From an uncultured Holophagaceae bacterium (GTDB lineage: Bacteria > Acidobacteriota > Holophagae > Holophagales > Holophagaceae): a stretch of 64,000 bases of DNA. Positions 1,554-21,243 of this stretch are shown here, piece after piece (the first letter of the stretch is position 1; every line of letters starts with the position of its first letter). A program made the position numbers and the translations under genes. The notes beneath the pieces are model-generated. The model searched no databases. It had not been told where the DNA came from and was given only the letters and a program-made list of their open reading frames with translations. Location: assembly GCA_903937385.1 (NCBI GenBank), contig CAIZZF010000005.1, forward strand, positions 124,001-188,000, read 5' to 3'.

Positions 1554-1647
1554 GTCGAACCGACCTCGTTTCTCAATGTTCAAAGGAAAGCATTTGTGAG
1601 GCTATTGGGTCCCGGCCAGATTGGGGGGCCCAAGTCTTGCTGGCCAC

Positions 1648-1938
1648 CTAGGCTGACCGCCGCAAGGAACGAAAGTCGTGGTTGCGATAGACGGTGAGGA
1701 CGGCCCCGCTGGGAGCACACAAAACCTGAAGGCCAGCAAATGGCCGAAGATCAATCCCCTTGCGCGAGGCGAACTGGACTTCCTTCTCGCCCAGCGCGTA
1801 GATCTGAGCGCCCCGCGCCCAGACCATGCGGCCATAGGCCAGGACGGTCTCAACTGCCTCGGTAGAGATTCGGCGACCATCCATCCGAGTTCGGGCATGG
1901 ATGGTCAAGGGGAGTGGAGCGATGTTCGATGGGCTCAT
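1648..1938 (-). CDS. DUF4258-type small protein, 96 aa
   Basis: The protein carries the pattern of the DUF4258 family: an N-terminal HARTRMDGRRISTEAVETVL helix pair around residues 14-34, a YALGEKEVQF strand, and a C-terminal GLQVLCAPSGAVLTVYRN strand pair ending in HDFRSLRR. DUF4258 proteins are small RelE/BrnT-like folds often found with toxin-antitoxin or defence genes, but their activity is poorly known. A very strong GGAGGTGAT precedes ATG 1938. A truncated, near-identical copy of its 3' end lies at 19.4 kb. No partner antitoxin is obvious next to it. Confidence 0.75.
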   Translation of the reverse strand: MSPSNIAPLPLTIHARTRMDGRRISTEAVETVLAYGRMVWARGAQIYALGEKEVQFASRKGIDLRPFAGLQVLCAPSGAVLTVYRNHDFRSLRRSA

Positions 1939-2029: not shown

Positions 2030-2175
2030 TTACGGTGTCCGTAGCGTCTGCTCGCCCCGGAGAGTCACTTGCTTACGTCGCGGATCAACGAAACTGACGA
2101 ACTCCGCCGGAGAGGAGATGGCGTGCATCGCGGTAAAACCGAGCACGGGGAGATGATAGCGATATGCCTGAAGGG
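2030..2175 (-). pseudogene. 3' remnant of a second ComF-like phosphoribosyltransferase gene
   Basis: Reading the minus strand into stop 2030-2032 gives a C-terminus containing LPVLGFTAMHAISSPAEF and ending VTLRGEQTLRTP. It aligns without gaps to the C-terminus of the intact phosphoribosyltransferase at 4.8 kb (LPIFGFAAMRAVSPPDKF, VTLRGDQTYRTP). Homology stops at about 2175; no start codon or PRPP loop precedes it. It is therefore a broken, diverged copy of only the last 45 or so codons. It lies downstream of the 799-residue gene, which separates it from the intact copy. The rest of the 1939-2265 gap shows no gene; 2176-2265 is AT-rich. Confidence 0.8.
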
Positions 2176-2265
2176 GCCTAGCAGTCAGTGGCTATCCACC
2201 AAAACATGGCGGTACAATTAGAAATGTCTTAATCATGCCGAAGTCAAAATCTTCCCTAATTTATT

Positions 2266-4665
2266 TTAGATATTCGATTTCAATTCATCTGTGAAGAGAT
2301 ATTGAACTGGGTTTTCATCTGGAAGCCTATTTAATAATTCCCGCCAAACTGCACCATTATTTGTAACATTTTCTTTAATGTCCCTAAAGAGAATTGGTTC
2401 TTTAGCAAGTTGGAATCGTTTTTTGCTAAAGATGAAACCACCTGTTTCTCGTGATTTCAACGTTAAACTACAGGATCTATGAAAAGAATCATCATATTCA
2501 TAGTAACTATATTCGAATTTCCATTTCATATCATCACCGCTTTTAACTTCTTCTGAAAATTTATAGTAGCGTTTATGATGAGGCAGTAGAATCTGATTAT
2601 ACACTCCAATATGTTCCATTAAACTAATGAAATCAGAAAATTTTGCTAAATCTGAACAATCATTACCATTGTCGTCCTTACAAGCTTCTTGTATCTGACC
2701 ATAACGGCCGAGAATGAGCATTATTTCGAAAATTATCGATGAAGACACAGCGGCAGGTAACCCAGTTAAATTAACAAGGGGGTGATTTTGGTCCAATTTG
2801 CTTAAGATCGATTTTCGAAGTGGAAATACTAGTGCAACTGGCCCCAATAGCTCGGCTTGCCAAACCTTTAGATCAGTTTCTAGTGTTTTTAGTTCACTAA
2901 AGTTAATTCCTTCGACACCTTTCGGAGAAGTTATAATATTTATCATCTTAACCGAGAGCGGTGATAATTTGAGTTCTAGGTTATAGAATTTACATCTATT
3001 TCGAATTTGGCTAAATACCCCGTAAAATTGTGACATTTCAATCCAAACACTTTTCCATAGGGAGCCCTTGGATTCCGCATATATCATTTGACTAATTTGA
3101 TCTCGAACAGAACTAAAAATTGGGTCATCAATCAGGCGTTGTAACTCTTCTAGACTCCATAAATCTGGGAATGAGCTAGGCAGTTTTTCAAAGGCAGCAA
3201 TGGAGACATTCAGAGCACCTTTGATTAGAGGCAGGGCGGCTACTGGGCCCAAATTGGGTGCGAGCGCAATTGCATACACTAAACCCCAATTATTTGATTT
3301 TGTTCGTAAAATTCCATTGTTCCATTTTTTCTTAAAGGTATCCGATTTAGTCTGCACCTCAACGGGGTTTTCACTGGATTCTATTTCTGATAAAATTTTA
3401 TAAATTTCCAACTGTTGGGCACTAGTTCCAAGATAAGTTGGCTTAAAATTATGATCAAATCTCGCCCAGTTACAATCATAAGTTCTCGTGTCTGGCAAGA
3501 GAGACAAAGTTGAATCAACATATTCTCTAACACATCGTCTTGGGAATTGTTTTAGATTCTCAGTGTATTTTGGTAGACCATTTATAATTAATTCAGAAAG
3601 TGGAATGAAATCAGGCTCAGAAAATGTCCTTATTAGAACAGATGGGCTTTCAGGGATACACTTTGCAAACAACAAGCTAACGGCTTCATTCAACTTTCCT
3701 TGTTTTGTTTTATATCGTGCAAGATCATATGCTGTATCAAAATCAAGATCATTTTTGTTTATCATGCTTAGCATTTCTTCAGCAGCACTGAAGTTATTAA
3801 GCAAATAATGCATGTGAGCGCAGTGGCGAAGAGCTTTTTTGAACCATTCTTGTTCTTCTTGGCCGTACAGCCTTGCTGAACGCTCGAAAGCCTCACACGC
3901 CTCTTGAAATTGTGAAAGGACCCCATCGTCTGCCTGTGCACCCTCGGCACACTGCCAAATCAGATACCCCTTCTGAAACCAGATCAGGGGATTGGATTGA
4001 CCAAAGGCACTGAGCAGGACTTCGCGAATTACCCCCATAGCATCTTGAAAATTGTCACGTTGCCATTTGCCAGTAGTAACCATCCCTTGGCTTGTGAGTT
4101 TTACGGCGCGGGCTATCAATTCGCGCAAACTTGTGTCGTTTGGGTTTGTAAGTAGTTTCTCAATCCGTTGGAGGCTTTTGTTACTTTCCTCGGAAAGGGC
4201 CTGCAGGTGAGCCATATCGCCATGGAGGACCTCGCAGGCCGCTTGGATGGCATCCGATATTCTCTCGCCGACTCCTTCCAATGCGCCCGTTAACGCCTCG
4301 CGTGACTCCCTTTCTGCCTCCAGAAGCTCTGAGAATCGGTCATCCATCCTGATCTCTCGAAGCCTTGCATCCTCCTGCGCTGCTTGATGCATCGCCAACG
4401 ATGATGCACAAAGAGATCGGATTTCGGTGGAGGTTTGCCCCTGTTCCTCCGCTAACCGATTTAAGGCTCGGATTGACGCGGCCCCAACTTCAACCTGGGT
4501 GAGCAGAGATTCAGCCAAAATTTTCTTGGTCGCATCGTCTCGACTAGAGAGCATGGTCACGCGATGGTCGTAGTCGATTTGGCGTATTTTCCAGGCCGAA
4601 ACCTTGCCAACCTCACCGCCAAACCATTTATTGGTGAACGAATCGTCCAGACCTGTAGTTTTCAT
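2266..4665 (-). CDS. Large coiled-coil/TPR-like protein, 799 aa, unknown function
   Basis: I do not recognise a named family. Residues 45-190 are strongly helical and heptad-like (AEEQGQTSTEIRSLCASSLA, ERESREALTGALEGVGERIS), suggesting a coiled coil. Residues 200-340 look like a few TPR-type helical repeats (NPLIWFQKGYLIWQCAEGAQ, FKKALRHCAHMHYLLNNFSA). The remaining 450 residues have no motif I know. A good GGAGGTGGGCT precedes ATG 4665. The DNA is GC-rich over the first 700 or so bases and then clearly AT-rich, so the gene looks like a fusion of segments with different histories. It sits between the intact phosphoribosyltransferase gene and the remnant of a second copy. It may be a sensor or scaffold in a defence locus, which is inference only. 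Confidence 0.75.
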   Translation of the reverse strand: MKTTGLDDSFTNKWFGGEVGKVSAWKIRQIDYDHRVTMLSSRDDATKKILAESLLTQVEVGAASIRALNRLAEEQGQTSTEIRSLCASSLAMHQAAQEDARLREIRMDDRFSELLEAERESREALTGALEGVGERISDAIQAACEVLHGDMAHLQALSEESNKSLQRIEKLLTNPNDTSLRELIARAVKLTSQGMVTTGKWQRDNFQDAMGVIREVLLSAFGQSNPLIWFQKGYLIWQCAEGAQADDGVLSQFQEACEAFERSARLYGQEEQEWFKKALRHCAHMHYLLNNFSAAEEMLSMINKNDLDFDTAYDLARYKTKQGKLNEAVSLLFAKCIPESPSVLIRTFSEPDFIPLSELIINGLPKYTENLKQFPRRCVREYVDSTLSLLPDTRTYDCNWARFDHNFKPTYLGTSAQQLEIYKILSEIESSENPVEVQTKSDTFKKKWNNGILRTKSNNWGLVYAIALAPNLGPVAALPLIKGALNVSIAAFEKLPSSFPDLWSLEELQRLIDDPIFSSVRDQISQMIYAESKGSLWKSVWIEMSQFYGVFSQIRNRCKFYNLELKLSPLSVKMINIITSPKGVEGINFSELKTLETDLKVWQAELLGPVALVFPLRKSILSKLDQNHPLVNLTGLPAAVSSSIIFEIMLILGRYGQIQEACKDDNGNDCSDLAKFSDFISLMEHIGVYNQILLPHHKRYYKFSEEVKSGDDMKWKFEYSYYEYDDSFHRSCSLTLKSRETGGFIFSKKRFQLAKEPILFRDIKENVTNNGAVWRELLNRLPDENPVQYLFTDELKSNI

Positions 4666-4813: not shown

Positions 4814-5467
4814 TTACGGGGTTCGATAGGTCTGGTCACCGCGCAAGGTCACCTTGCCGCGTTGGGGATCAAATATTCGCTCGAATTTGTCTGGCGGTGA
4901 CACCGCGCGCATCGCCGCAAACCCAAAGATGGGTAGCCCTGGATAGGCTTCCATCACTCGGGCGCAGATCCCCAAAAGAGTGGCTCCACGAGTGATGACA
5001 TCGTCCACCAGCAAGATGGACGTGGCGCCAGTTAGAGTCCTCGTCACTTTCACTGAGTCATAGTGATCAGCAGCCTTGGAGCGCGCGCTGGCCTGGCTGA
5101 AGGCCGACTTGGGCAAGGCTCGGGTGCGTTCCGCTATGGGCGCCACTTCCCCAACCAGACCCGCCTCCTTGAGGCTGTTGGCAAGCTCTAGGGGCATTTG
5201 GAGCGAGCCTGGTTGTTTCAGCGAACTGCTGGGGATCGGGATCGCCAGAACGTTCTCGCCGAACAGGCCAGCAAAGGCGGCACAGTCCTGGTGCTCCTGG
5301 ACCCGGAGGGCAATCCATTGGCTGATGGGGCGGGCCGGGTTGCCCACACTCTTGTCTTGTTTCAGTTGGACCGACACTTGCTTGGATTTTTTCTCGTCCT
5401 CAGTCTCTGGTCGGGTTGCATAGGAAAGCAGCGAACAGAACCCAACCTCAGAAGGCAAGTTCGGCAT
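4814..5467 (-). CDS. ComF-like phosphoribosyltransferase, 217 aa
   Basis: A type I phosphoribosyltransferase fold is shown by the PRPP-binding loop LLVDDVITRGATLLG around residues 152-166 and an upstream VLAIPIPSS strand at 73-80. The nearest familiar group is ComF/amidophosphoribosyltransferase-like proteins. There is no N-terminal zinc finger of the ComFC type, but Cys-rich spots occur at residues 11 and 62. It overlaps the end of the DprA-like gene by 20 bases and is last in the five-gene operon from 8794. ComF and DprA both act in DNA uptake in competent bacteria, but here, in an island without competence genes, the pair more likely acts in defence or on nucleotide-derived signals. The substrate cannot be read from sequence. 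Confidence 0.8.
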   Translation of the reverse strand: MPNLPSEVGFCSLLSYATRPETEDEKKSKQVSVQLKQDKSVGNPARPISQWIALRVQEHQDCAAFAGLFGENVLAIPIPSSSLKQPGSLQMPLELANSLKEAGLVGEVAPIAERTRALPKSAFSQASARSKAADHYDSVKVTRTLTGATSILLVDDVITRGATLLGICARVMEAYPGLPIFGFAAMRAVSPPDKFERIFDPQRGKVTLRGDQTYRTP

Positions 5468-6149
5468 AACCAGCCTGCAAGGAAGGAGGAATCAGATCGA
5501 GCACGTCTTCAGTGCGGCCGAGCACAGAGGCTCCATACTCAATCAATTCCGCTGGCCAATGCAGGGCCTCATTATCAAGGATGGATTGCAGCAGGAAGAG
5601 CGGCCGTCCCAGCCGGAGTGCTTCCCAGCCTTGCGACAAGGAACCGCTCGATTCCCCTGCCTCAATGATCACGGAAGCATGGCTGATCAGGGCCATGGTG
5701 CGATTGCGTTGGGGGAAGTTCTTCGGCTGGGTGGGCGTCCCCGGTGCGAATTGAGAGATCACCAATTGCTCGTCGGCCAGCCGGGCCTGGAGGCTGCGGT
5801 TTTTGGCTGGATAAGAAATATTGAGGGGGGTGCCAATGACCGCCACGGTCCGCCCTTTGGCATCGAGAGCAGCCTGATGGGCAGCCGTATCGATCCCTTC
5901 CGCGAGCCCAGAGACAATCGTGACTCCCGCCTCCACCAGTTCTCTGGCCAGTTTGGTGGCTCTACGCAGACCAGCCTCAGAAGCTTGGCGGGACCCGATG
6001 ATCGCCACTCTGGGGCCAGCCCGGAGCAGTTCCTGATCCCCTACCGCATAGAGACATTTGGGGGCGTACTTCGTTTCCACCTCGTTCAGGGGACCGAGCA
6101 ATTCCTCTGCAGTAAGGGTCGCGAACTGTCCCCCAAACTCCGACGCCAT
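5448..6149 (-). CDS. DprA/Smf-like DNA-processing (SLOG-fold) protein
   Basis: The Rossmann-like core of DprA is clear: VAIIGSRQAS at residues 48-57, VSGLAEGIDTAAHQAAL at 79-95, the NFPQRNR motif at 144-150, VIIEAGESSGSL at 160-171 and GRPLFLL. It has neither the N-terminal SAM-like domain nor the C-terminal winged helix of full-length DprA; at 233 residues it is close to a minimal core. DprA binds single-stranded DNA and loads RecA in transformation; related SLOG domains bind nucleotide signals. An in-frame TTG at 6209 would add 20 residues (YTWALLQGE); ATG 6149 is preferred for its GGGTGAG site. It is fourth in the operon and overlaps the phosphoribosyltransferase gene. Confidence 0.85.
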   Translation of the reverse strand: MASEFGGQFATLTAEELLGPLNEVETKYAPKCLYAVGDQELLRAGPRVAIIGSRQASEAGLRRATKLARELVEAGVTIVSGLAEGIDTAAHQAALDAKGRTVAVIGTPLNISYPAKNRSLQARLADEQLVISQFAPGTPTQPKNFPQRNRTMALISHASVIIEAGESSGSLSQGWEALRLGRPLFLLQSILDNEALHWPAELIEYGASVLGRTEDVLDLIPPSLQAGYAELAF

Positions 6150-6254
6150 TGGCTCACCCTGAAGCAATGCCCAAGTGTAGCGGTTTTCGGGCGGCTGGCG
6201 CGGCAACAATACGCAATTTTTTCGCCCTCGCCTGGGGAATGGACCCTCTTGGCG

Positions 6255-6824
6255 TCAGAAGCCTTCTGAAACCACGCCAATTCGAAACTCGCGTTCGTCG
6301 GGGCCAGGCAACGAGTTGCAGTCCGCGAGTTCGGCTTCCCCGAGGGTGAACAAGATGCCCTGACGCGCAGTTTCCCGGACCTTACTGCTCTTGTCGTTGG
6401 CTTGAATGGCCGCCAGGATCTCGACCAAGAGCGGCACCTGGTACAAGCCCAAGCACTGCACCAGGTATTGCCGAACCTGCCAGCTTTTCGCCGTGAGATG
6501 CGGCAGGATGGCCTCAGCACACTCCACGCCCAGACCAATGAGGGCATTCCGGGCCCGGATGGCGTTGGCACTGTCCGGCTGGGCCAGCAGCAACTCCACC
6601 AGCGCTGGCGCTGCCATCGTGGCTTCCGTGGCAACCAGCACTCCAGTGATGATCTCGATGGTCTGTTTCCGTTGACTTTTGAGGCCGCCGAGCAGATCGG
6701 CTGGGTTGAAGTCCAGGTGGATACCGACTTTGATCAAGTCCCCAACCTCAGCCCAGGTGGCCAGTTCGGCTCTGGCGAGAAAGATCTGTGGGGTGTAGGT
6801 GAATTCCTGTTCAGGGGTGCTCAT
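6255..6824 (-). CDS. HEAT-like repeat protein, 189 aa
   Basis: The protein is almost wholly alpha-helical with alternating helix pairs such as ATMAAPALVELLLAQ, AIRARNALIGLGVECAEAIL and SWQVRQYLVQCLGLYQV, the pattern of HEAT/Armadillo repeats covering roughly residues 60-165. Such repeats form protein- or nucleic-acid-binding solenoids. It starts at ATG 6824 behind GGAGG with six-base spacing. It is third in the operon, between the small membrane protein and the DprA-like gene, so it may bridge the membrane-anchored J-domain protein and the cytoplasmic DprA/phosphoribosyltransferase pair. That role is inference; repeat assignment is by eye. Confidence 0.7.
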   Translation of the reverse strand: MSTPEQEFTYTPQIFLARAELATWAEVGDLIKVGIHLDFNPADLLGGLKSQRKQTIEIITGVLVATEATMAAPALVELLLAQPDSANAIRARNALIGLGVECAEAILPHLTAKSWQVRQYLVQCLGLYQVPLLVEILAAIQANDKSSKVRETARQGILFTLGEAELADCNSLPGPDEREFRIGVVSEGF

Positions 6825-6842
6825 TGGCAACCTCCGTTAGCA

Positions 6843-7112
6843 TTATTGGGGCGGACGCGGTTGGCTAGGCTGCACCCTGGGAGTCTTGGGTTTCGCAGAC
6901 AACGGCGGAGGTGCTGCCACGGCCGGAGGCGCTGGTTTGGGAGCCGGGGCGCCGCCAGGTGCGCTCAGGCTGGCGCGGATGACACACGCAATCCCAACGA
7001 CGACCAAGGCCGCAATGCCGAACTTCTGGCCAAAGCCAATCGAAGCGAGCGGCTTGTTCAGCATGAAGGCGTGGGAGTCAAAGCGGATCTTCCAGGGAAC
7101 GTTCTGAGTCAT
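6843..7112 (-). CDS. Small membrane protein with proline-rich tail, 89 aa
   Basis: One predicted transmembrane helix (about residues 32-50, IAALVVVGIACVIRASL) separates a basic N-terminus from a tail made largely of Pro and Ala with a few Lys (PAPKPAPPAVAAPPP). No known family. It overlaps the upstream DUF4236/J-domain gene by four bases (ATGA), so the two are translationally coupled. The tail is likely unstructured and could span the periplasm or serve as a docking strand. Function is unknown; membership of the operon is the main information. Confidence 0.75.
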   Translation of the reverse strand: MTQNVPWKIRFDSHAFMLNKPLASIGFGQKFGIAALVVVGIACVIRASLSAPGGAPAPKPAPPAVAAPPPLSAKPKTPRVQPSQPRPPQ

Positions 7113-8794
7113 GGAGTCTTCCCCTTCCCCAAGCCCTGCGAGGAGAGGAAGTCATAGGCTTCCGTTATCTCTGACATTTTTTTATGGGCCAACTCGCGGA
7201 ACTCAGGTGGCAGGTTGGCGTGGATGTCAGGGTGATAATCCTTGGCCATGCGCCGATAAGCGACGACCAAATCCTTCTCGGTCCACTCTCCGACCAAGTT
7301 GAAGAGGGCGATGGCGCGCTCCTTTCGTTGCAAAGGAGAGTCCCGCACCGGTGGAGGGGGCGGCGGGGGGGCTGGCGCTGGTTTCGCTCTGGGCTTGCGA
7401 GTCTTCTCCGAGGAGGCTTTCGGAGCGGGCGCAGGCGGTGGTGCTGGCGGCTTGGGCGCGGCCTCCTGCCTTGGCGGCTCGTAGGGTGGCGTCACGCCAG
7501 TACGCAAGCCTTCCAGGGCCATCACCAAAACTCGGTACATAACCTCAGCAACATAGGGGTGCGAGAATACGATTTCGATGGTCGTACTCTCCACGGTGAA
7601 AGCGACCGCCCCCACCTTGAACACGACCGTACTGGGATTGAATTTGAACCGCCGGTCAGGGCCCCCGCTCACCCGTTCGTGTTGCCAGCGCCTGCTCACC
7701 ATAGGACTATCGGGCGGTGGATTTCCCTGGGTGGAGGAATAGCGCACTTTGTGCTCGACCGTCACCTTGGCCCAGTCGTAACCCAGGAACCGGTTCCGGT
7801 GGTGGTCGAAAATGAGTAACCCGTTGGGGCCAAAGTAGAGATCCAGGAGTTGACTATGCACGCCCGTCATCTGGCAGGGGGTGGCCACGTGCGGCGGCGT
7901 CAGCAGTCCTGCTGTCGCTTGAAACATGGCCCCGTCGGTGGCCACCCAGAGCGCAGACGCGTTAGCAAAGCCCTCCGTCAGGAGCTTGGTCCAGTCACTA
8001 TCCTCTGTGACTTTCCCCTCCCAGGAATAGCCGAGAAACAGCCAGCGAGAGTTCTTCTCGACCAAGCCCAGGACCCCGATGCTGCCAGCAGCCACCGCCG
8101 AGACCAGACCATCCGGCGTCACCAAGGCTAGACCGAGAAACCCCACCGCGAAGGCCAAGGAGACCTCGGAGAACTTCCAGTTGGCGGCAGCGACAGTGGC
8201 ACCGCCCAGAAAACCGGCCATCACCCCAAGACCAGCCAAGTCGTCAGCCGTGCCTTTGAAACCGCCAGCCTGAGTCAAGAGATCGGCTGGCAGGTGGTAG
8301 CAAGCAATCGCACCCAAACCCAGACCTAGGATGCTGAAGAACTTCCACTGACCAGGCTTGTCCTCCCAACGAGCGCCCGTGAAGTACCTGGGACCGCCCA
8401 CTAGCACGATGGCAAACAGCAGCAGGGCCCAGTAAGGACTCCCGAGCAGGAAGAGCGGGAGGGGCAGGAGAAAGCGCAGGGTCAGGAGAACATCGGAGGC
8501 GAGGGCTGCATTAAGGCCATCAAAATCCGGATCGGTGTTTTGCAGAGCAGCGGGCAGAGTGACTGAGGTCGTGGAGGGTCTTGAGGTGGTTGGATAAGCG
8601 TTGGCCCGCAGGCCAGTGAACGTCTTGAGGCGTTTTCGGTAATAGAAGCCCCCTCGGCCAAGAGACAGCGTGGTTCCTTGTGGGCCGACCCCAATCCTCG
8701 CCCCCGTGATGCCGGTGGAAACACCGATACCCGAAGTAGAGAAGTTGAAGTTGAAGGGGCCAGCCGACCTGGTCTTACGGAAGAAAAAACCCAA
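7109..8794 (-). CDS. DUF4236 / multi-pass membrane / J-domain protein, 561 aa
   Basis: The N-terminus (MGFFFRKTRSAGPFNFNFS, then GIGVSTGITGARIGVGPQG) matches the DUF4236 domain. Residues 100-250 contain about four to six hydrophobic helices (PLPLFLLGSPYWALLLFAIV; LGLGLGAIACYHLPADLL; VSLAFAVGFLGLALV). A soluble middle follows, then a Pro/Ala/Lys linker at about 435-475. The last 70 residues form a J-domain with the HPD triad in MAKDYHPDIHANLP, the signature that stimulates DnaK-type Hsp70. The start is TTG 8794, with GGAG seven bases upstream, because DUF4236 proteins begin with MGF. It is first in the five-gene operon. A J-domain suggests chaperone-driven assembly or disassembly of a membrane complex. 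I know of no characterised protein with this architecture. Confidence 0.8.
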   Translation of the reverse strand: MGFFFRKTRSAGPFNFNFSTSGIGVSTGITGARIGVGPQGTTLSLGRGGFYYRKRLKTFTGLRANAYPTTSRPSTTSVTLPAALQNTDPDFDGLNAALASDVLLTLRFLLPLPLFLLGSPYWALLLFAIVLVGGPRYFTGARWEDKPGQWKFFSILGLGLGAIACYHLPADLLTQAGGFKGTADDLAGLGVMAGFLGGATVAAANWKFSEVSLAFAVGFLGLALVTPDGLVSAVAAGSIGVLGLVEKNSRWLFLGYSWEGKVTEDSDWTKLLTEGFANASALWVATDGAMFQATAGLLTPPHVATPCQMTGVHSQLLDLYFGPNGLLIFDHHRNRFLGYDWAKVTVEHKVRYSSTQGNPPPDSPMVSRRWQHERVSGGPDRRFKFNPSTVVFKVGAVAFTVESTTIEIVFSHPYVAEVMYRVLVMALEGLRTGVTPPYEPPRQEAAPKPPAPPPAPAPKASSEKTRKPRAKPAPAPPPPPPPVRDSPLQRKERAIALFNLVGEWTEKDLVVAYRRMAKDYHPDIHANLPPEFRELAHKKMSEITEAYDFLSSQGLGKGKTP

Positions 8795-8964: not shown

Positions 8965-9540
8965 TCAGGGTGCTTGATAGCTTTCGGAGTGGGCCAGGTG
9001 CGCCTCCCAATTCTGCCGATAGACACTCGCTAGGCCCCGGTCGGAAATGATGAGCAAGTTCTCTGCGTTATGTTCCTCGGCCGCCTTGGTGAAGTTGAAG
9101 CTGCCGGTGATCAGCGTGGCCTCATCAATCACCATGACCTTATTGTGGGCGATGGCGTGACTGGCATCGATCCATACTGGAATACCGGCATGAGCGAGAA
9201 AAGTGGCGCTGGTATAGCGCTCGGTGCGCTGACTCTTATCGAGAATGACCCTGACTCCCACGCCCCGGTCGTGAGCCGCCTTTAGGGCTGCCGCGATGGG
9301 GGCAGAGGTGAAGGAATAGGCTTGGACTAGAACCGATTTCTTGGCCTGACTCAAGGCGGCCACGACAGCTTCAGTGGCCCCTCCTTTCGGACTGAAATAG
9401 ACCTTGGTCGGCACCGACTGCAGGGTGAGTTCGGTCCCACCGGCCATTAATGGCCTCGCGCTGGGCCCCAACATGCTCCAGAGCGCGACCAGCGCCGCCC
9501 CGAGAAGAGAAAGAAGACCGACTTGCCGACGGGGACGCAC
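8965..9540 (-). CDS. Secreted phospholipase-D-family endonuclease (Nuc-like)
   Basis: A single HKD motif, HNKVMVIDEATLITGSFNFT, lies near residue 140, as in small dimeric Nuc-type nucleases that use a phosphohistidine intermediate to cut DNA without sequence specificity. A hydrophobic N-terminal segment (VGLLSLLGAALVALWSML) suggests export or membrane anchoring. KVYFSPKGGATEAVVAALSQ and VLVQAYSFTS are standard PLD-core strands. GTG 9540 is chosen because GGAGGG lies just upstream; GTG 9552 is the longer alternative. It lies upstream of the DprA operon on the same strand with a 170-base gap, in which I see no other gene. Confidence 0.85.
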   Translation of the reverse strand: MRPRRQVGLLSLLGAALVALWSMLGPSARPLMAGGTELTLQSVPTKVYFSPKGGATEAVVAALSQAKKSVLVQAYSFTSAPIAAALKAAHDRGVGVRVILDKSQRTERYTSATFLAHAGIPVWIDASHAIAHNKVMVIDEATLITGSFNFTKAAEEHNAENLLIISDRGLASVYRQNWEAHLAHSESYQAP

Positions 9541-9667
9541 GGTGCCCTCCACACTGAAAGTTCATTCGCTCAGGCCTTGGAGGTCATCTCAAAGGGAGAT
9601 TGCATCTGATTGCTCAAGATCGGGCAGTTCGGGCAACTCCATGATAGAAAGGGACTTCAAAATTTTT

Positions 9668-13476: not shown

Positions 13477-16400
13477 TCATGCCGTCAAGGCTCTAATGTA
13501 TGAGTTGGCTATTTCTACAGCCTTAATAAATTCCGCTTCGAGCTTCTTTCCTCGTTGACCAGCCATCGAGGAGATCCAACTCCCCACGGCAGCCCCATCT
13601 GGAGAAAGTTGATCAATTCCCGCCCTGACTGGATCGAGATCTAGGTTATTACCCGTGCTTTCCAAAACTATCGAAGCACACGACTCTTCGATATCGCCCA
13701 GAACCAGAATCAAGGTTGGGACTAGCACAACGCGTCTGGCTGCCAAGCAGAGGAATAATCGTTCAAGAGCAGAGGTCAGGACATCGCAATGAATGCTGTA
13801 TTGAGTTAGAGCGTTTAGACACGCAGCGAGAATGTTTTCTCGAATGACGGTGTCATCAGCATCGCTACAAAGTGCTTCACTGAAGCCTCGGAGGAGGAGT
13901 AGCCCTGGGTGGCTTGGATAAGACTCAAGGAATCGAATTGATTCTCCTCGAAATTCTCCCGCTTCGAGGGTGTTGCTGATTTTTTCGGCATAAGTACACC
14001 AATCATCAAGGCTCACTGTCTCCTGGAGAACCAAGGATTGGATGGCTTCAGCCCCGATCCCTTCCTGGAGATAGTCCAACAGACGTCGCCTGAAGGCATC
14101 ATCACTGATGCCATGTCGAGCCGCATCCATCGCTTCCTGGATTGCGCGGCGACGGGCACGTTCCACAACGTCATAGCTGAATTCGGTTAACACTCGTACA
14201 AAGGTCTCTAAGGTCTGTTCTGGATTTTCAACATTGCTTGCATCCAGAAATTCAGACATAGCCTGTTGCCGACCGGGTTGGGAGCGTCGAACATACGTGA
14301 GAATTCGTTCTTTGGCCACTTCTGGACTGAATGGCCTTGCATCTACTTCATATTTTCCTGAACCAAAGTCTACGGTGTAATCCTCGACCAGCCCGACTTG
14401 AAGCAGGCGAAAGATGGCTCTCTCTCTGAGCTTTTTCTCGGTGTCGTCTGCCCCAAAGCCCAAGGTCACCCGCCCTGACTTGGAGGCTCCACCGATCTCT
14501 TTGATCACCTGGGAAATTCGCTTACGCTCTTCCTCGGCCCCCGGATAGCTATTGTGGTGAAACCACAATTCATTGGCCGCGTCACTCCGATAACCACGCG
14601 GCTGCTCACCCATGATCCGCTTGCTTTCCTCAATGGAAATTCGAGGATCCACCATTCGTTGCGTGGTGGCCTCGTCACCTTCACCGTAGATGACGATGCA
14701 ATGTGCCGTGGAACCCTTGGCTCGACCTGCCCGCCCCGCTTCTTGGTAGTAGGCTTCTAACGAGCCAGGCATCCCCATGTGAATGACATAACGGATGTTC
14801 TTTTTGTCGATTCCCATCCCAAAGGCCTTGGTGGACACAAGAATCGGTGTTCGGTTCTGAATGTAGTTCTTCGCATTATTCTTTTTTTCTCTCCCCCATG
14901 TCTTAGAGGATTGGCCACCGAAGGGGGATTTCCCGCTATATATGCCGACTTCAGTGTTGACTACGCCCTTTATGACCTCTCGGAGGATCCCAACACCTAG
15001 ATCACCGGAGGCATATTTCGTGAACACCAACCCACTGTAAGTTTCCTTTCCTCTTGATTGGAAGAATCGCCCATGTTGGACCCGGAAAATATCTGGCAAG
15101 CGATTCAGGGCACCCTTCAATGCCGCCGTGCGCTCGTCTGGCCTTACTCTTCGAATCTCGAAGGTGAGTTCCTTCCGGTTGAAGGACGTTGGTCGAATCA
15201 CAGCGTCTGAGTCCGAGGGATCGATTTCTAAGTCGGCTAGCATATCTCGCAGAACGGCTCTGGAGGCAGTCCCGGTGAGGGCCAAAATTGGCGGAGGAAC
15301 CCCCTCCTCGGCCTTGCAGTGACTTCGGAGGTTTCGCCCGAGGTTCAAATAGGCAGTGCGAAAATCATGGCCCCACTCTGAAACACAATGGGCCTCGTCG
15401 ATGACCGCTAAATTGATTGAGGAGTGCTCCCGCAAGGCCAGCAAGGTCCTGCGAAAATCTGGAATCTGCAGCCGCTCAGGGGACATGAGCAAAAACAGAT
15501 ACTCGCCGGATTCCACCCTGTTCAGGACAGCCTGGCGCTTCCCACCGAGTGAAAGGGATTCCATAGTAATTCCCATCACTCGTTCAATCCCGTATCCAGA
15601 TAGACCACGGACTTGGTCATCGACCAGTGATACGAGTGGGTCGATGACAATGGTTATCCCTGGCTGAATCAGGCCCGCGAGTTGGTAGACGATACTCTTC
15701 CCGGCACCGGTTGGAAGAAGGACGACCGTGTCCTTGCCCATTACGGTGCGTCTGATGGCCTCGCGCTGACCCTCCCGGAACTGACGCTTCCGAAACACCG
15801 TTTGTAGGAGGTGGACCAAGGCCGCATCAGCTTGATCTATGTCCATGCTCGCGACGGAGGGGCGTTGTCCGATGAACTGACACCGCATTTTGAGGGGGAC
15901 GGGGAGAAAGGCCGACCTGATCAGTATGTCTGCCTGAAATGCCTCACCCTTCGTGGTGTCGTGATAGGGACCAAAGTCGTTCTCAAGGGCAAGCCTAAAC
16001 GGTTCATCCCCCCATTCACAAACGGCCTCTCCAACTACTTGTTCTCCATCTCGGAATCTCGCTCTGACCTTCGTAGGTGCAGTCGTGATTCCATAGATTG
16101 CATCCAGTGCGCGAAGTGTTTCAACCAGATCGAATATTGCTGCAGCAAATTCCTGCGAGGCATCGAACTGCAGATCCCACGGACCACCGGCTTGGATCCA
16201 GCCATTCTCCAGCGCTCGCACCAAGGCGTATTGTAAGCGCGCTGCTGAGCTACAAAATCGCACGGACCTGGCCAGGCCGATGCCTCTAGCATCCTCCTCT
16301 TGGCCGTTGTGTTCGGTCATTCGAGTCTGCATTAGGGTCAGGGCGTCTGCTAGATTTTTCCCTCCCCCGGAATCTATTTCAGCGTTGGGAATGCGTACCG

Positions 16401-17595
16401 TGTCATAGCCACAGGCAGCCAATTGCTGCTCCCGCTCCTTATCAATTGCCTGATTGTCGTCGTGTTCCCCGCCATCGATTTCGATCACAAGGGGACGAGA
16501 GCCAGGATAGAAGAACAGGAAGTCGGCACGACGCCCCTCAGCAACCTCCTTCGCACCGCGCCCACGCGCCATCGCCGAGAAGGAAGCCTGCGGATAAATA
16601 TAATTCCCGGCGGCAGGGAGATTGTGAGGGATCACTTCTTTCAGAAATTTCTCTTCAAGGGGTGAATCCAGCCCAATCCTGGAGGCCGTTTTTACTCTTA
16701 GATCATTCGACGGAGTCCATTCGTCATTAAGCCTAATCGCCTCGATCATCGAAGCTTCTGAGATTTCCTCCGCGATATCTCGCTTTAGTCGCCAGCCGAT
16801 TTCATCGCTATCGTCGTTTATCTCCACCAGGTCCTCTAGCCCACAGGAGACGACGCATTGGTCTTCAACACACATGGTATTAAGAGCGAGGTAGCCTCGC
16901 TGGAGCAACTTCTTGGCGACATTCGCAACGATGCGCACATCATTGCTGACTGATGGGCGCTCCTTTGACTTACGGAGAAGCAAGGCACATCCAGCGGCAG
17001 TACGCATGATGTCACTTGAGATTTCGCCAAGAGAATTCATTAAGAAACCAGGAGCCGCTCCAAGTTCAAGGAACTCTGTCTCCCAGTGGGTTCGTTCAAT
17101 GTACTCGGCCCAATCTACTGGTACTGCTTGAATCCCAGCCAAGCCTTCCGTGTCGGTCTCTGGGCTCCCGTCCTCGTTCAGATTGCGCGTACCCTTACAA
17201 CCGTCGCGATACTTGGTGCACCCATAAAATTTCGACCCCTCATTGCCGCCTTTTTTTGCGGTTCGCAATACCATCGGCGCTCCACATTCCGGGCACAGCA
17301 CTGCCTCGACCGGGGTGTGTGGGGTTGGCGGGGTGGCCCCTTGCGCAAACGCCTCGGAATGCGATGTGTTTGTGGCGACGGACGCAGTGGCTGGGGCCAG
17401 TTGGGGCCCAGGAATGCCATCTCTACGTTTCCACCGATAGCTGGCATCAACCTGCACCATGGCCAGCATGTCCTTCGCGTAGAGCCTTTTGTTGATATCA
17501 CTGGAGCCAACCTTTAAGAGTCGGCCAATCTCCTTTGCCAACACATCTGGCTGTTGGTCGATGATCTCTAGGATTCGACGGCCAAGCTCATCCAT
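13477..17595 (-). CDS. RecQ-type helicase fused to winged helix, zinc finger and DUF559/Vsr-like nuclease
   Basis: Domains in order (approximate residues): winged helix 3-58; topoisomerase-type zinc finger 101-135 (CPECGAPM and GCTKYRDGCKGTRN); a Vsr/DUF559-like endonuclease region 310-410 with RRADFLFFYP, LVIEIDGGEHDDN, DKEREQQLAACGYDTVRIP; and a RecQ-like superfamily 2 helicase from about 590 (LLPTGAGKSIVYQL Walker A; VIDEAHCVSEWGHDFR Walker B and RecQ motif; AFGMGIDKKNIRYVIHMGMP and EAGRAGR, motifs V and VI). The C-terminal 350 residues are helical and unassigned. TTG 17661 would add 22 residues; ATG 17595 is preferred. It probably unwinds and cuts DNA and fits an anti-phage role. A membrane-anchored coiled-coil gene follows ten bases downstream. 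Confidence 0.85.
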   Translation of the reverse strand: MDELGRRILEIIDQQPDVLAKEIGRLLKVGSSDINKRLYAKDMLAMVQVDASYRWKRRDGIPGPQLAPATASVATNTSHSEAFAQGATPPTPHTPVEAVLCPECGAPMVLRTAKKGGNEGSKFYGCTKYRDGCKGTRNLNEDGSPETDTEGLAGIQAVPVDWAEYIERTHWETEFLELGAAPGFLMNSLGEISSDIMRTAAGCALLLRKSKERPSVSNDVRIVANVAKKLLQRGYLALNTMCVEDQCVVSCGLEDLVEINDDSDEIGWRLKRDIAEEISEASMIEAIRLNDEWTPSNDLRVKTASRIGLDSPLEEKFLKEVIPHNLPAAGNYIYPQASFSAMARGRGAKEVAEGRRADFLFFYPGSRPLVIEIDGGEHDDNQAIDKEREQQLAACGYDTVRIPNAEIDSGGGKNLADALTLMQTRMTEHNGQEEDARGIGLARSVRFCSSAARLQYALVRALENGWIQAGGPWDLQFDASQEFAAAIFDLVETLRALDAIYGITTAPTKVRARFRDGEQVVGEAVCEWGDEPFRLALENDFGPYHDTTKGEAFQADILIRSAFLPVPLKMRCQFIGQRPSVASMDIDQADAALVHLLQTVFRKRQFREGQREAIRRTVMGKDTVVLLPTGAGKSIVYQLAGLIQPGITIVIDPLVSLVDDQVRGLSGYGIERVMGITMESLSLGGKRQAVLNRVESGEYLFLLMSPERLQIPDFRRTLLALREHSSINLAVIDEAHCVSEWGHDFRTAYLNLGRNLRSHCKAEEGVPPPILALTGTASRAVLRDMLADLEIDPSDSDAVIRPTSFNRKELTFEIRRVRPDERTAALKGALNRLPDIFRVQHGRFFQSRGKETYSGLVFTKYASGDLGVGILREVIKGVVNTEVGIYSGKSPFGGQSSKTWGREKKNNAKNYIQNRTPILVSTKAFGMGIDKKNIRYVIHMGMPGSLEAYYQEAGRAGRAKGSTAHCIVIYGEGDEATTQRMVDPRISIEESKRIMGEQPRGYRSDAANELWFHHNSYPGAEEERKRISQVIKEIGGASKSGRVTLGFGADDTEKKLRERAIFRLLQVGLVEDYTVDFGSGKYEVDARPFSPEVAKERILTYVRRSQPGRQQAMSEFLDASNVENPEQTLETFVRVLTEFSYDVVERARRRAIQEAMDAARHGISDDAFRRRLLDYLQEGIGAEAIQSLVLQETVSLDDWCTYAEKISNTLEAGEFRGESIRFLESYPSHPGLLLLRGFSEALCSDADDTVIRENILAACLNALTQYSIHCDVLTSALERLFLCLAARRVVLVPTLILVLGDIEESCASIVLESTGNNLDLDPVRAGIDQLSPDGAAVGSWISSMAGQRGKKLEAEFIKAVEIANSYIRALTA

Positions 17596-17971
17596 CAGGC
17601 ACTCAGCAATTCCAAGACCACGTAGCCCTCCAAGCTCATCGATTATTCCCGAGCCAAACAAACCCCAGATGTACTCTAGAACACCAATACAACAGTTTGT
17701 GGACTAGTAGGTCACATGTGATGATAGTCTAGCCGAATATTAATAGTGGCAAGCCTAGAGACTCCTATTGCAGGCCTCTCCACCTCGTGAGGACCCGCGT
17801 AGTTGACTCGCCCTGACGGTTATCGGAATTTAGAGCCCAGCCCTCCCAGCCAAGCACCGGAGATAGCTTTCCGCCGACGGCGGCTCGATAGCCCGGCCAG
17901 AACCCAATGGTGGTGGGACAAACGCTCCTGAAGGCTCATCCGGATTAGCATGAAGTGGCCAGCGTCTACGC
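17596..17971. other. Gene-free gap between ATPase/TOPRIM and helicase genes
   Basis: I see no convincing coding frame here. It must contain the helicase promoter (minus strand, just above 17600) and the 3' end of the ATPase gene's transcript. Base composition returns to GC-rich from about 17770, in contrast to the AT-rich ATPase gene at its right, so a transfer junction probably lies within or close to 17970-18040. No long repeat or terminator was recognised by eye. Confidence 0.5.
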
Positions 17972-19285
17972 CTAGCCGATCTTCGCCTCGACGTGACGCA
18001 GAAGCATCGAAGTGAATTCTGGATGCAGCGCAGTCGTCGCATCCGTGAGTGTTAAGACTTTCTCTAACAGTTCACCCTTATTGTGCGAAATACCATTCCT
18101 AGACACGATATCTCCATCTATAGTTATTTCTCCACCACTACCAAAGATTTTATCCATCACAATGGGCGGATAATAATATTCAATTCCATTTTTTGGCCAA
18201 ACTATAATATGCTCTCTCAATACACCCATGGATACTAATTGATCTGTTAACCCGTGGACATGGACTGAATCAAGTACAACAAAAATGCGATCCCGATAGG
18301 GGCTCTTCTGTATGTCAGCGAAAAGGGATTTTGTAAGATTTAGTATTTCTTTGATTCTGGAATCCGAATTTGCAGAGATGACACTGATACAATTATTTTG
18401 ATACCGTATGGATAGGATTCTATCTATAAATTTATGGTCGCATTTCCCTTCTACAAGCATGATTGCAGATGGGAGATAAAGGGTTTCAAAGCGATTTCCG
18501 AGCAAGAAAAAATGAATATTATTGAATTCAATTTGATTTGTAACCTGTTTTATATTAATTGCATCACCAGATTTTGTTACCGTGAAATTATTTTTCAAAT
18601 TTACTCGATCCAGAAATATTGTAGAATGAGTTGCAAAAATTATTGTCTTTATGTGTGGGAAAAAGGTTGCTCTATGGGCCCTATCAAATAAAAAATCAGC
18701 CAAAATACCCTGAGCTTCCGGACTAATTCCAAGCTCTGGCTCATCAATTAAAAATGTATCATATTCGTCGTTTAGCAGGCTCGTGACCAAGGTCATAATC
18801 AACCTAAAGCCAGAACTTGTGTATGATAGATTGTGGCCGCCGCTGGAAATATACTGCTGAGACATAGAATTATTTGGGATGGTGTGTTTGATCTCCAAAT
18901 CTATACCGAGAATTAGTTTAACTATCTTCTTAAGAGATTCCCTGCGTTCATCGGAGAGTTCTGCAATAGATTCTTGTAGATTGACCGGGGAATTGTCCAT
19001 ATTCTGTTGTTGATGCTGCCAGGAATGTATGAATTCACTCCATTTTTGATCCTTTCTGTTTTGATTTGGCGCAAAAAAGCTAAGCAGATTAAAATTTTGA
19101 TACCTTGCCGGTCCAATAAATGAAGCATTTTTGCCAATTTCCTGTGTTAATTGCTTCAAGACAAATGATTTCCCACAATTATTTTTCCCTACTAGAACGG
19201 AATACTCTGAGCTTTTTATGTGTTGGCATATCGGCACCGACTCATCAGTGAGGTGAGTGGCTGGTTTTTGGTCATATTGATACAT
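17972..19285 (-). CDS. OLD-like AAA ATPase with TOPRIM-type C-terminus
   Basis: The ABC/SMC-type ATPase core shows a Walker A at about 31-42 (VLVGKNNCGKSF), Walker B at about 179-188 (FLIDEPELGI) and the H-loop ATHSTIFLDRV. The C-terminal part has a TOPRIM-like start, AIMLVEGKCDHKFIDRIL, and a later acidic strand, FVVLDSVHVHG, as in OLD-family nucleases. At 437 residues it is shorter than classical OLD (about 580). OLD-family proteins are used in anti-phage defence (P2 Old, Gabija GajA), with ATPase-regulated DNA cleavage; no GajB-like UvrD helicase is adjacent. The gene is clearly AT-rich relative to neighbours, suggesting recent acquisition. AGGGG precedes ATG 19285. It may act alone or with the helicase downstream. 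Confidence 0.8.
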   Translation of the reverse strand: MYQYDQKPATHLTDESVPICQHIKSSEYSVLVGKNNCGKSFVLKQLTQEIGKNASFIGPARYQNFNLLSFFAPNQNRKDQKWSEFIHSWQHQQQNMDNSPVNLQESIAELSDERRESLKKIVKLILGIDLEIKHTIPNNSMSQQYISSGGHNLSYTSSGFRLIMTLVTSLLNDEYDTFLIDEPELGISPEAQGILADFLFDRAHRATFFPHIKTIIFATHSTIFLDRVNLKNNFTVTKSGDAINIKQVTNQIEFNNIHFFLLGNRFETLYLPSAIMLVEGKCDHKFIDRILSIRYQNNCISVISANSDSRIKEILNLTKSLFADIQKSPYRDRIFVVLDSVHVHGLTDQLVSMGVLREHIIVWPKNGIEYYYPPIVMDKIFGSGGEITIDGDIVSRNGISHNKGELLEKVLTLTDATTALHPEFTSMLLRHVEAKIG

Positions 19286-19334: not shown

Positions 19335-19497
19335 CCGACCTCGTTTCTCAAGTATCGATGGGGAGCCTGGTTGTGGCTGTTAGCCATATAGGCTGACAGC
19401 CGCAAGGAGCGAAAGTCGTGGTTGCGATAGGCGGTGAGGACGGCCCCGCTGGGAGCACACACAACATGGAGGCCCGCAAACGGTCGAAGATCTATTG
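19335..19497 (-). pseudogene. DUF4258 3' remnant plus repeated junction sequence
   Basis: Positions 19389-19497 encode on the minus strand IDLRPFAGLHVVCAPSGAVL and YRNHDFRSLR, matching the C-terminus of the intact DUF4258 protein at 1.65 kb almost exactly; the first half of the gene is missing. About 40 bases further on, 19335-19351 holds CCGACCTCGTTTCTCAA, identical to 1560-1576 just past the intact gene. So a block of DUF4258 end plus downstream linker is present twice, about 17.8 kb apart in direct orientation, each time followed by a different cargo gene. The remainder of the 19286-19644 gap (19500-19640) shows no gene. Confidence 0.85.
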
Positions 19498-19644: not shown

Positions 19645-21024
19645 TCAGGACACCACTCGCGCCGAGACAGGCTCTTTGTCGACCATCCTCCGTTTGATTC
19701 GAGGATCGAGTTCAATGATCGGCTTTGGAAGCTGGCATTGATTGCGTTCTGCGGCAGCAGCTTCAAGGCCCAAATGTGGTGCTTTAGAATCAATCTCTTC
19801 TCCGGCCCACCCAGGGAGCAGGTGGCCATAGTGCTTCTCGATCATACGGGTCGACTTGTGTCCGAGTGCCTTAGCCAATGCAACCGGATTGGCGCCAGCC
19901 ATCAAGAGGGTCGAGGCATATGTATGACGCAATTCATGGAAGACCAGCTTATCAATTCCTGCCTTTTTGACCGCATCCTGGAACGGGCGTACATGATGGT
20001 TCTTCTCCCATGGTGTTCCGTCTGGACGTAAGAAGACGTACGACTCAGGCCTTCTGTTCTCAGTCATCCGGGCCATAAAGGCAGAAGCCTCTGTCGTAAT
20101 TGGAACCGTCAGATTCGCCCCTCCCTTACTCGCCGGAAGCAGGATGGCCTTCGAGTGAACATGAACATCGCGAACCCTCAACTTGCACAGACTCCCGAAA
20201 CGCAGGCCAGTGTACAAAGCCCCTTCCACAAGTTCGCAAATGCCAGGAGCGCAGGCCGCAACCAATAGCTGCTGCTCTTCCAGGCTGAGGAAGCGCGTGC
20301 GGATGCCGTCCACCTCGCGAAAGCCCCCAACCAGCCGCCAAGCGTTCGCCCCTCCGTCGGCACCGCTCCGAACCGCTCGGTTGAGCGCTGCCTTGAGCAT
20401 GTTCAAGATCCGATTCGCTGTTGATTTACGCTTTCGCAGCGCGTCATCACGCTCTTCATCTGTCGCGAAGACCCTGGGTTTTTTGGGGCCCTTTCCTGAG
20501 CGGTTTAGACGCTGACTCTGGGCAATGCCATTCCGCCACTGTTCAACCAGCCGTACTGTCAGTGCTGAAAGGGGTAGCTTGGCAATCGAATGTTTCAGTA
20601 CGTAGCAATGGAAGGAGAGCGCGGCTGCGACTGCAGTCTTCTTTTCCAGTTCGAGGTAAGCCACATATTCATATACCGCCTGGGTAACAGAAAGCGCCGG
20701 TGTCAGGACTCTCGAATTATCATGAGCCACCATGGTGCCCCGGACCCACTTCACAGCGCGGTCACGGGCTTGGTCGTACGACAAGATCGCTATGCCATCC
20801 GCGTCTGCTAGGTCATCAGCCACGCCGATTTTGGTTTGAACACGACCGCTTTTCACGCCTGGAACGGTAAGACGGACTAGCCAACGACCAGCTTGTCCAT
20901 GCCCGGTGCGATACCCAATCTGAGAACCCTCTTCGAGCCTTACCCAATAGGGTGATTTCCGGATCTTCAGGAGTTCCCGTGCACTGCGGGTGGCTAACGG
21001 TTCAGATCGACGCTTCCTCGCCAT
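19645..21024 (-). CDS. Tyrosine-type site-specific recombinase (island integrase)
   Basis: The catalytic set of tyrosine recombinases is present: Arg in YTGLRFGSLCKLRVRD (residue about 275), Lys in SKGGANLTVP, HELRHTYAS (about 363-371), LGHKSTRMIEKHYGH with the last His (389) and the nucleophilic Tyr (399). The N-terminal half contains a core-binding SAM-like domain and an arm-binding region rich in Lys/Arg. The start is ATG 21024, eight bases behind GGGGGG; upstream in-frame ATGs are too close to it. The gene lies next to the tRNA-Glu fragment and is transcribed away from it, so it is most likely the enzyme that integrated the island. No excisionase gene was recognised beside it. Confidence 0.92.
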   Translation of the reverse strand: MARKRRSEPLATRSARELLKIRKSPYWVRLEEGSQIGYRTGHGQAGRWLVRLTVPGVKSGRVQTKIGVADDLADADGIAILSYDQARDRAVKWVRGTMVAHDNSRVLTPALSVTQAVYEYVAYLELEKKTAVAAALSFHCYVLKHSIAKLPLSALTVRLVEQWRNGIAQSQRLNRSGKGPKKPRVFATDEERDDALRKRKSTANRILNMLKAALNRAVRSGADGGANAWRLVGGFREVDGIRTRFLSLEEQQLLVAACAPGICELVEGALYTGLRFGSLCKLRVRDVHVHSKAILLPASKGGANLTVPITTEASAFMARMTENRRPESYVFLRPDGTPWEKNHHVRPFQDAVKKAGIDKLVFHELRHTYASTLLMAGANPVALAKALGHKSTRMIEKHYGHLLPGWAGEEIDSKAPHLGLEAAAAERNQCQLPKPIIELDPRIKRRMVDKEPVSARVVS

Positions 21025-21190
21025 TTTCATTCCCCCCATAGATTCGGAAACCGAAGAATTGACGCGCTCCAAAGCGCTCCAAATCGGGGGAAAATCGTAT
21101 GATTTTCTCGACCCTTATTTACATCATACTATCTTCTAACATCTCTGATTCAAATATTTCAAAACCGCTTCTATTGCACTTACCCGACGA

Positions 21191-21234: not shown

Positions 21235-21243
21235 GAACAAAAA

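What the first reader, a model, noticed from the sequence alone, without database searches (positions are those of the whole stretch)
4814..8794. Five-gene operon: DUF4236/J-domain membrane protein, Pro-rich membrane protein, HEAT-like protein, minimal DprA, ComF-like phosphoribosyltransferase
Seen directly: overlaps of 4 and 20 bases and short gaps make one operon; the DprA core and PRPP loop are intact, and the J-domain HPD is present. Known: DprA binds single-stranded DNA in transformation and ComF is a competence protein, but no competence genes are near and the operon sits in an integrated island between nuclease and helicase genes. Inference: this could be a membrane-linked system that detects incoming DNA or a nucleotide signal and uses a phosphoribosyltransferase effector, with Hsp70 recruited by the J-domain. 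I recall DprA/ComF-like pairs being mentioned in surveys of defence islands, but know of no characterised system with these five parts.
Basis: partly seen in the sequence, partly recalled or inferred. Interest (0 to 1): 0.75.

Follow-up and report, generated by a model that had tools for sequence, protein, structure and literature searches.

The report
ShosTA-like toxin–antitoxin pair, chance neighbours
Two of the five genes form a compact version of ShosTA, a known phage-defence toxin–antitoxin pair found on plasmids and in phages; the other three genes were not found beside that pair anywhere else, so this is probably not a new five-part system.

Summary
The five minus-strand ORFs exist as described, but they do not behave as one conserved unit. 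Genes 4 and 5 (DprA core and phosphoribosyltransferase, PRTase, overlapping by 20 bp) are a ShosTA-type toxin–antitoxin pair. The DprA falls in a strongly supported clade (0.996) with DprAs from nine other DprA–PRTase pairs, on plasmids and in two genomes of the same phylum. That clade is sister to PADLOC ShosA proteins and apart from housekeeping DprA, of which the genome has its own copy. The pair is a compact, divergent variant: no N-terminal DprA extension, and a PRTase only 12–18% identical to other ShosT proteins. Genes 1–3 are absent from all ten other pair loci examined. Gene 1 (DUF4236 plus J-domain) has homologues of the same architecture in three genomes of the phylum, none with these neighbours. 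Genes 2 and 3 have no detectable close relatives. So the five-part membrane/Hsp70 sensor is not supported; what remains is a divergent member of a known defence family inside an integrase-bearing island. Toxin, antitoxin and defence roles are inferred from published ShosTA and RqlHI work, not tested here. Interest low to moderate.

The parts
4814..5467 (-). Gene 5: ShosT-like phosphoribosyltransferase, 217 aa, proposed toxin/effector
   Evidence: PADLOC ShosT 2.5e-14; PRPP loop invariant across relatives; directly after a DprA gene in relatives
5448..6149 (-). Gene 4: ShosA-like minimal DprA (233 aa from ATG 6149; open frame from TTG 6209), proposed DNA-binding antitoxin
   Evidence: Pfam DprA 6.8e-57; PADLOC ShosA 1.8e-72; clade with other pair DprAs, support 0.996
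6255..6824 (-). Gene 3: HEAT-repeat-like protein (about 189 aa from ATG 6824), orphan; not shown to be part of the pair
   Evidence: HEAT_2 1.1e-5, below cut-off; no close relatives; absent from other pair loci
6843..7112 (-). Gene 2: 89-aa protein with one predicted membrane helix and a Pro-rich tail, orphan
   Evidence: no family match; 4-bp overlap with gene 1
7109..8794 (-). Gene 1: DUF4236 - hydrophobic segments - conserved central region - Pro-rich linker - J-domain protein, 561 aa; homologues elsewhere without a ShosTA neighbour
   Evidence: Pfam; same architecture in three other genomes, none next to a DprA-PRTase pair

Best explanation
Genes 4 and 5 are a compact ShosTA-type toxin-antitoxin pair carried by a mobile island. 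The PRTase (gene 5) would be the toxin, acting through PRPP-dependent chemistry on the nucleotide pool and so damaging DNA metabolism. The DprA-core protein (gene 4) would be the antitoxin, binding DNA and restraining the PRTase or repairing its effects. Phage infection or another disturbance would upset this balance and stop the infected cell. Genes 1-3 are neighbours not shown to take part. Shown here: gene identities, the conserved pair, the DprA clade, and the absence of genes 1-3 at the other pair loci. Inferred from ShosTA and RqlHI literature: the toxin and antitoxin roles and phage defence.
For: PADLOC ShosA 1.8e-72 and ShosT 2.5e-14 on adjacent genes. The DprA-PRTase pair, mostly overlapping by about 10-20 bp, recurs in two genomes of the phylum and on plasmids of Allochromatium, Paracoccus, Sulfitobacter, Pseudosulfitobacter, Roseivivax and Chryseobacterium. 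DprA tree: window plus nine pair partners 0.996, joined to ShosA of PADLOC model PDLC03961 (0.874), apart from housekeeping DprA. A separate housekeeping DprA is in the genome. Full-length ShosT relatives in 3 of 396 genomes, the pattern of a mobile gene. A DprA+PRTase pair from a P2-like phage protects against T7 and lambda (PMC9122126). A review of Pu et al. 2025 gives PRTase/pyrophosphatase toxin and DNA-binding ShosA antitoxin (PMC12593503). In RqlHI, PRTase-dependent genotoxicity is restrained by a DprA-like partner and lost in a PRPP-pocket mutant (PMC4670107).
Against: The ShosT model does not discriminate: a ComF protein scores 9.8e-16, slightly better than gene 5. Gene 5 is only 12-18% identical to phage/plasmid ShosT proteins and has no significant match to the ShosT of the P2-type phage. 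Housekeeping DprA also hits the ShosA model (4.6e-49). The P2-type ShosA lies outside the window clade on a long branch. No experiment is known to me on any compact pair, and the Pu et al. paper itself was not available to read.
Confidence: 0.82

Rival explanations
1. All five genes form one defence system: a membrane J-domain protein and a HEAT protein sense or localise the signal, DprA and PRTase respond.
For: Same strand, 4-bp overlap of genes 1-2, short gaps, 20-bp overlap of genes 4-5.
Against: Genes 1-3 absent from all ten other pair loci. DUF4236 proteins occur in 17 of 396 genomes and full-length ShosT in 3 of 396; only this genome has both. Same-architecture gene-1 homologues occur without the pair. 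About 105 bp separate gene 3 from the likely start of gene 4.
Confidence: 0.04
2. Genes 4 and 5 are displaced competence genes (DprA plus ComF) serving natural transformation.
For: Fold-level similarity of gene 5 to ComF and of gene 4 to DprA.
Against: Separate housekeeping DprA; gene 4 lies outside the housekeeping clade; comF match is E 0.006 against a 233-bit cut-off; relatives lie on plasmids; patchy distribution.
Confidence: 0.04
3. The pair is a plasmid/island maintenance (addiction) module whose selected role is stability of the element, with phage defence incidental.
For: Relatives are mostly on plasmids, some next to replication and partition genes; the window island carries an integrase.
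Against: Related pairs lie in phage genomes and a P2-type pair blocks phages. Not exclusive of the main explanation.
Confidence: 0.2

Closest known systems
ShosTA (PADLOC models PDLC03961 ShosA / PDLC03962 ShosT; for example pairs in Burkholderia phage Mana and an E. coli plasmid)
   Same: DprA-family gene directly upstream of, and overlapping, a PRTase gene; sister clade in the DprA tree; found on phages and plasmids
   Different: Window DprA is the core only (233 aa against 282-303) and the PRTase is just 12-18% identical
ShosTA of P2-like phages (PADLOC PDLC02997 / PDLC03012; P2_4C9)
   Same: DprA-like plus PRTase gene order; this kind of DprA+PRTase pair was reported to defend against T7 and lambda
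   Different: 349-aa and 424-aa proteins; ShosA about 30% identical to gene 4; PRTase with no significant match to gene 5
RqlHI / PsyrTA
   Same: In RqlHI a DprA-like protein restrains a PRTase-dependent toxin
   Different: In RqlH the PRTase is fused to a RecQ-like helicase; gene 5 is a free PRTase
DUF4236-J-domain proteins (gene 1 homologues in three genomes of the phylum)
   Same: DUF4236, central GGPDRRF motif and C-terminal J-domain with HPD
   Different: Those genes have no ShosTA, HEAT or gene-2 neighbour; the window protein has an inserted hydrophobic region and a long Pro-rich linker

Membership tests
ShosTA | DprA-family gene immediately upstream of a PRTase gene, same strand | tested here: met
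   Genes 4-5, 20-bp overlap; arrangement kept in the nine other pair loci used in the tree
ShosTA | DprA of the ShosA lineage rather than housekeeping DprA | tested here: met
   PADLOC ShosA 1.8e-72 against 4.6e-49 for the genome's own DprA; tree
ShosTA | PRTase specifically of the ShosT family | tested here: inconclusive
   ShosT model 2.5e-14, but a ComF control scores 9.8e-16; 12-18% identity to other ShosT
ShosTA | Intact PRPP-binding loop | tested here: met
   LLVDDVITRGAT; D155, D156, T159, G161 invariant
ShosTA | PRTase toxicity neutralised by ShosA, phage protection | not testable with these tools
   needs bench work
ComF/DprA competence pair | ComF family membership and competence neighbours | tested here: not met
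   comF E 0.006, far below cut-off; no competence family among the neighbours scanned
Five-gene system | Co-occurrence of the five genes in other genomes | tested here: not met
   0 of 10 pair loci; 0 of 3 gene-1 homologue loci

The most novel reading that the evidence does not exclude
The J-domain/DUF4236 membrane protein and the HEAT protein have been recruited in this one lineage as accessory sensors or regulators of a compact ShosTA pair, giving a membrane-linked, Hsp70-regulated toxin-antitoxin defence system.
Probability: 0.04. Interest if true: 0.65.

Novelty: new variant of a known kind. Interest (0 to 1): 0.22.

Why it matters
It shows that the DprA-PRTase toxin-antitoxin theme has a compact branch, mostly plasmid-borne in the records searched, with a minimal DprA and a PRTase so divergent that current profile models cannot separate it from ComF. 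That branch would make a small test case for whether the DprA core alone is enough as antitoxin. It also removes a proposed five-part system from serious consideration.

Tried and rejected
Five-gene co-occurrence: rejected. Competence role: rejected. Filing gene 5 as ShosT by model score alone: rejected because a ComF control scores as well. Structure of gene 5 without an alignment: mean pLDDT 33.7, unusable. Gene 1 in the GTDB contigs gave only a J-domain hit; that method reaches close relatives only. Genes 3 and 5 in viral contigs: no relative. Promoter scan: no hit, uninformative. Empty-site comparison with the nearest relative ended at an IS element in that relative, so only the right edge near 21,237 was seen.

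Full report
What is there. Five intact minus-strand ORFs occupy 8794-4814. Gene 1 has an N-terminal DUF4236 (2.4e-11) and a C-terminal J-domain with HPD (DnaJ 1.2e-6), with three hydrophobic segments at residues 114-132, 186-204 and 213-231. Gene 2 has one hydrophobic segment and a Pro-rich tail. Gene 3 is HEAT-like but below the Pfam cut-off. Gene 4 is a DprA core (6.8e-57). Gene 5 carries a PRPP loop but reaches no curated PRTase cut-off. The overlaps of 4 and 20 bp are real. From the sequence and the alignment to homologues, gene 4 more likely starts at ATG 6149, which leaves about 105 bp after gene 3.

Genes 4-5 are a ShosTA-type pair. PADLOC names them ShosA (1.8e-72) and ShosT (2.5e-14). 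As a control, the genome's own housekeeping DprA scores 4.6e-49 on ShosA, and a ComF from the phylum scores 9.8e-16 on ShosT, so the models alone do not settle membership. Three other lines bear on it. First, a DprA gene directly before a PRTase gene, mostly overlapping, recurs in two other genomes of the phylum and on plasmids of Allochromatium, Paracoccus, Sulfitobacter, Pseudosulfitobacter, Roseivivax and Chryseobacterium; DprA identity to gene 4 is about 50-59% and PRTase identity about 26-34%. In two plasmid records (L081, L082) the annotated PRTase gene is shorter than the match and may be degraded. Second, in a DprA tree the window protein and nine pair partners form a clade (0.996), joined to ShosA proteins of the PDLC03961 kind from a Burkholderia phage, an E. 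coli plasmid and Rhizobium (0.874), apart from housekeeping DprA. Third, full-length relatives of gene 5 occur in only 3 of 396 genomes of the phylum (E < 1e-78; the next match is 1.6e-12). All three were in the alignment used as query, so that gap is partly by construction, but the single-sequence search also puts them first.

What differs from described ShosTA. The DprA lacks the N-terminal extension of the other ShosA proteins (233 aa against 282-349), and the PRTase shares little beyond the PRPP loop with other ShosT proteins (12-18% identity). I therefore call it a compact divergent variant.

Genes 1-3 are not part of it on present evidence. tblastn of all five proteins against ten other pair loci finds genes 4 and 5 in all and genes 1-3 in none. 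DUF4236 is found in 17 of 396 phylum genomes; this genome alone has both it and full-length ShosT. Three of those genomes (G299, G359, G370) encode gene-1 homologues with the same DUF4236 ... GGPDRRF ... J-domain layout, and in the 14 kb around each there is no relative of genes 2-5. Curtobacterium plasmids carry DUF4236 relatives matching two parts of gene 1, also without the pair. Gene 3 has only weak HEAT-level matches elsewhere. Absence of relatives for genes 2 and 3 limits what can be tested: linkage in a lineage not sampled here cannot be excluded.

How it most likely works. From the literature read here: a DprA+PRTase pair from a P2-like phage protects against T7 and lambda (PMC9122126); a review states that ShosT acts as a phosphoribosyl transferase and pyrophosphatase disturbing purine metabolism, that ShosA binds DNA and counteracts the damage, and that T7 Gp0.7 triggers the system (PMC12593503 on Pu et al. 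2025); in RqlHI, PRTase-dependent genotoxicity is restrained by a DprA-like partner and lost in a PRPP-pocket mutant (PMC4670107). Transfer of these roles to the compact pair is inference. A solved ShosA exists (PDB 9vzo), matched by gene 4 at 1e-17, though canonical DprA structures match better.

Setting. The genes lie in a stretch with a tyrosine integrase (19645-21072), a RecQ-like helicase with a DUF559 domain (13477-17661), an OLD-like ATPase (17972-19285) and a PLD-family protein (8965-9552). Similarity to the nearest relative stops at 21,237, just outside the integrase; the left edge was not found. A remnant of a second ShosT C-terminus lies at 2033-2188.

Verdict. Observation partly confirmed; the five-gene interpretation is not supported, the DprA/PRTase defence idea is. 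Known kind, divergent variant, low to moderate interest.

Noticed in passing
window 2033-2188 (-): Remnant of a second ShosT C-terminus (53% identical to gene 5 residues 167-217), lying just beyond the 799-aa gene at 2266-4665; suggests an older copy was lost or rearranged.
   Followed up: partly
window 1643-1752 and 19383-19492: 110-bp direct repeat (90% identical) from the 3' end of a DUF4258-like gene, bracketing about 17.6 kb that includes the finding; possible trace of the island's assembly.
   Followed up: partly
window 13477-17661 (-): 1394-aa RecQ-like helicase with a Zn-ribbon and a DUF559 nuclease-like domain, matching PADLOC DpdF and PsyrT models; no PRTase domain detected.
   Followed up: no
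window 17972-19285 (-): AAA ATPase with weak OLD TOPRIM and retron-Eco8-effector similarity, low GC; another possible defence gene.
   Followed up: no
window 2266-4665 (-): 799-aa low-GC gene without any confident family match, between gene 5 and the ShosT remnant.
   Followed up: no
window 8965-9552 (-): PLD-family protein with DrmC-like PADLOC matches, directly upstream of gene 1.
   Followed up: no
L109 3764-7550: Rhizobium plasmid with two DprA-PRTase pairs on opposite strands side by side.
   Followed up: no
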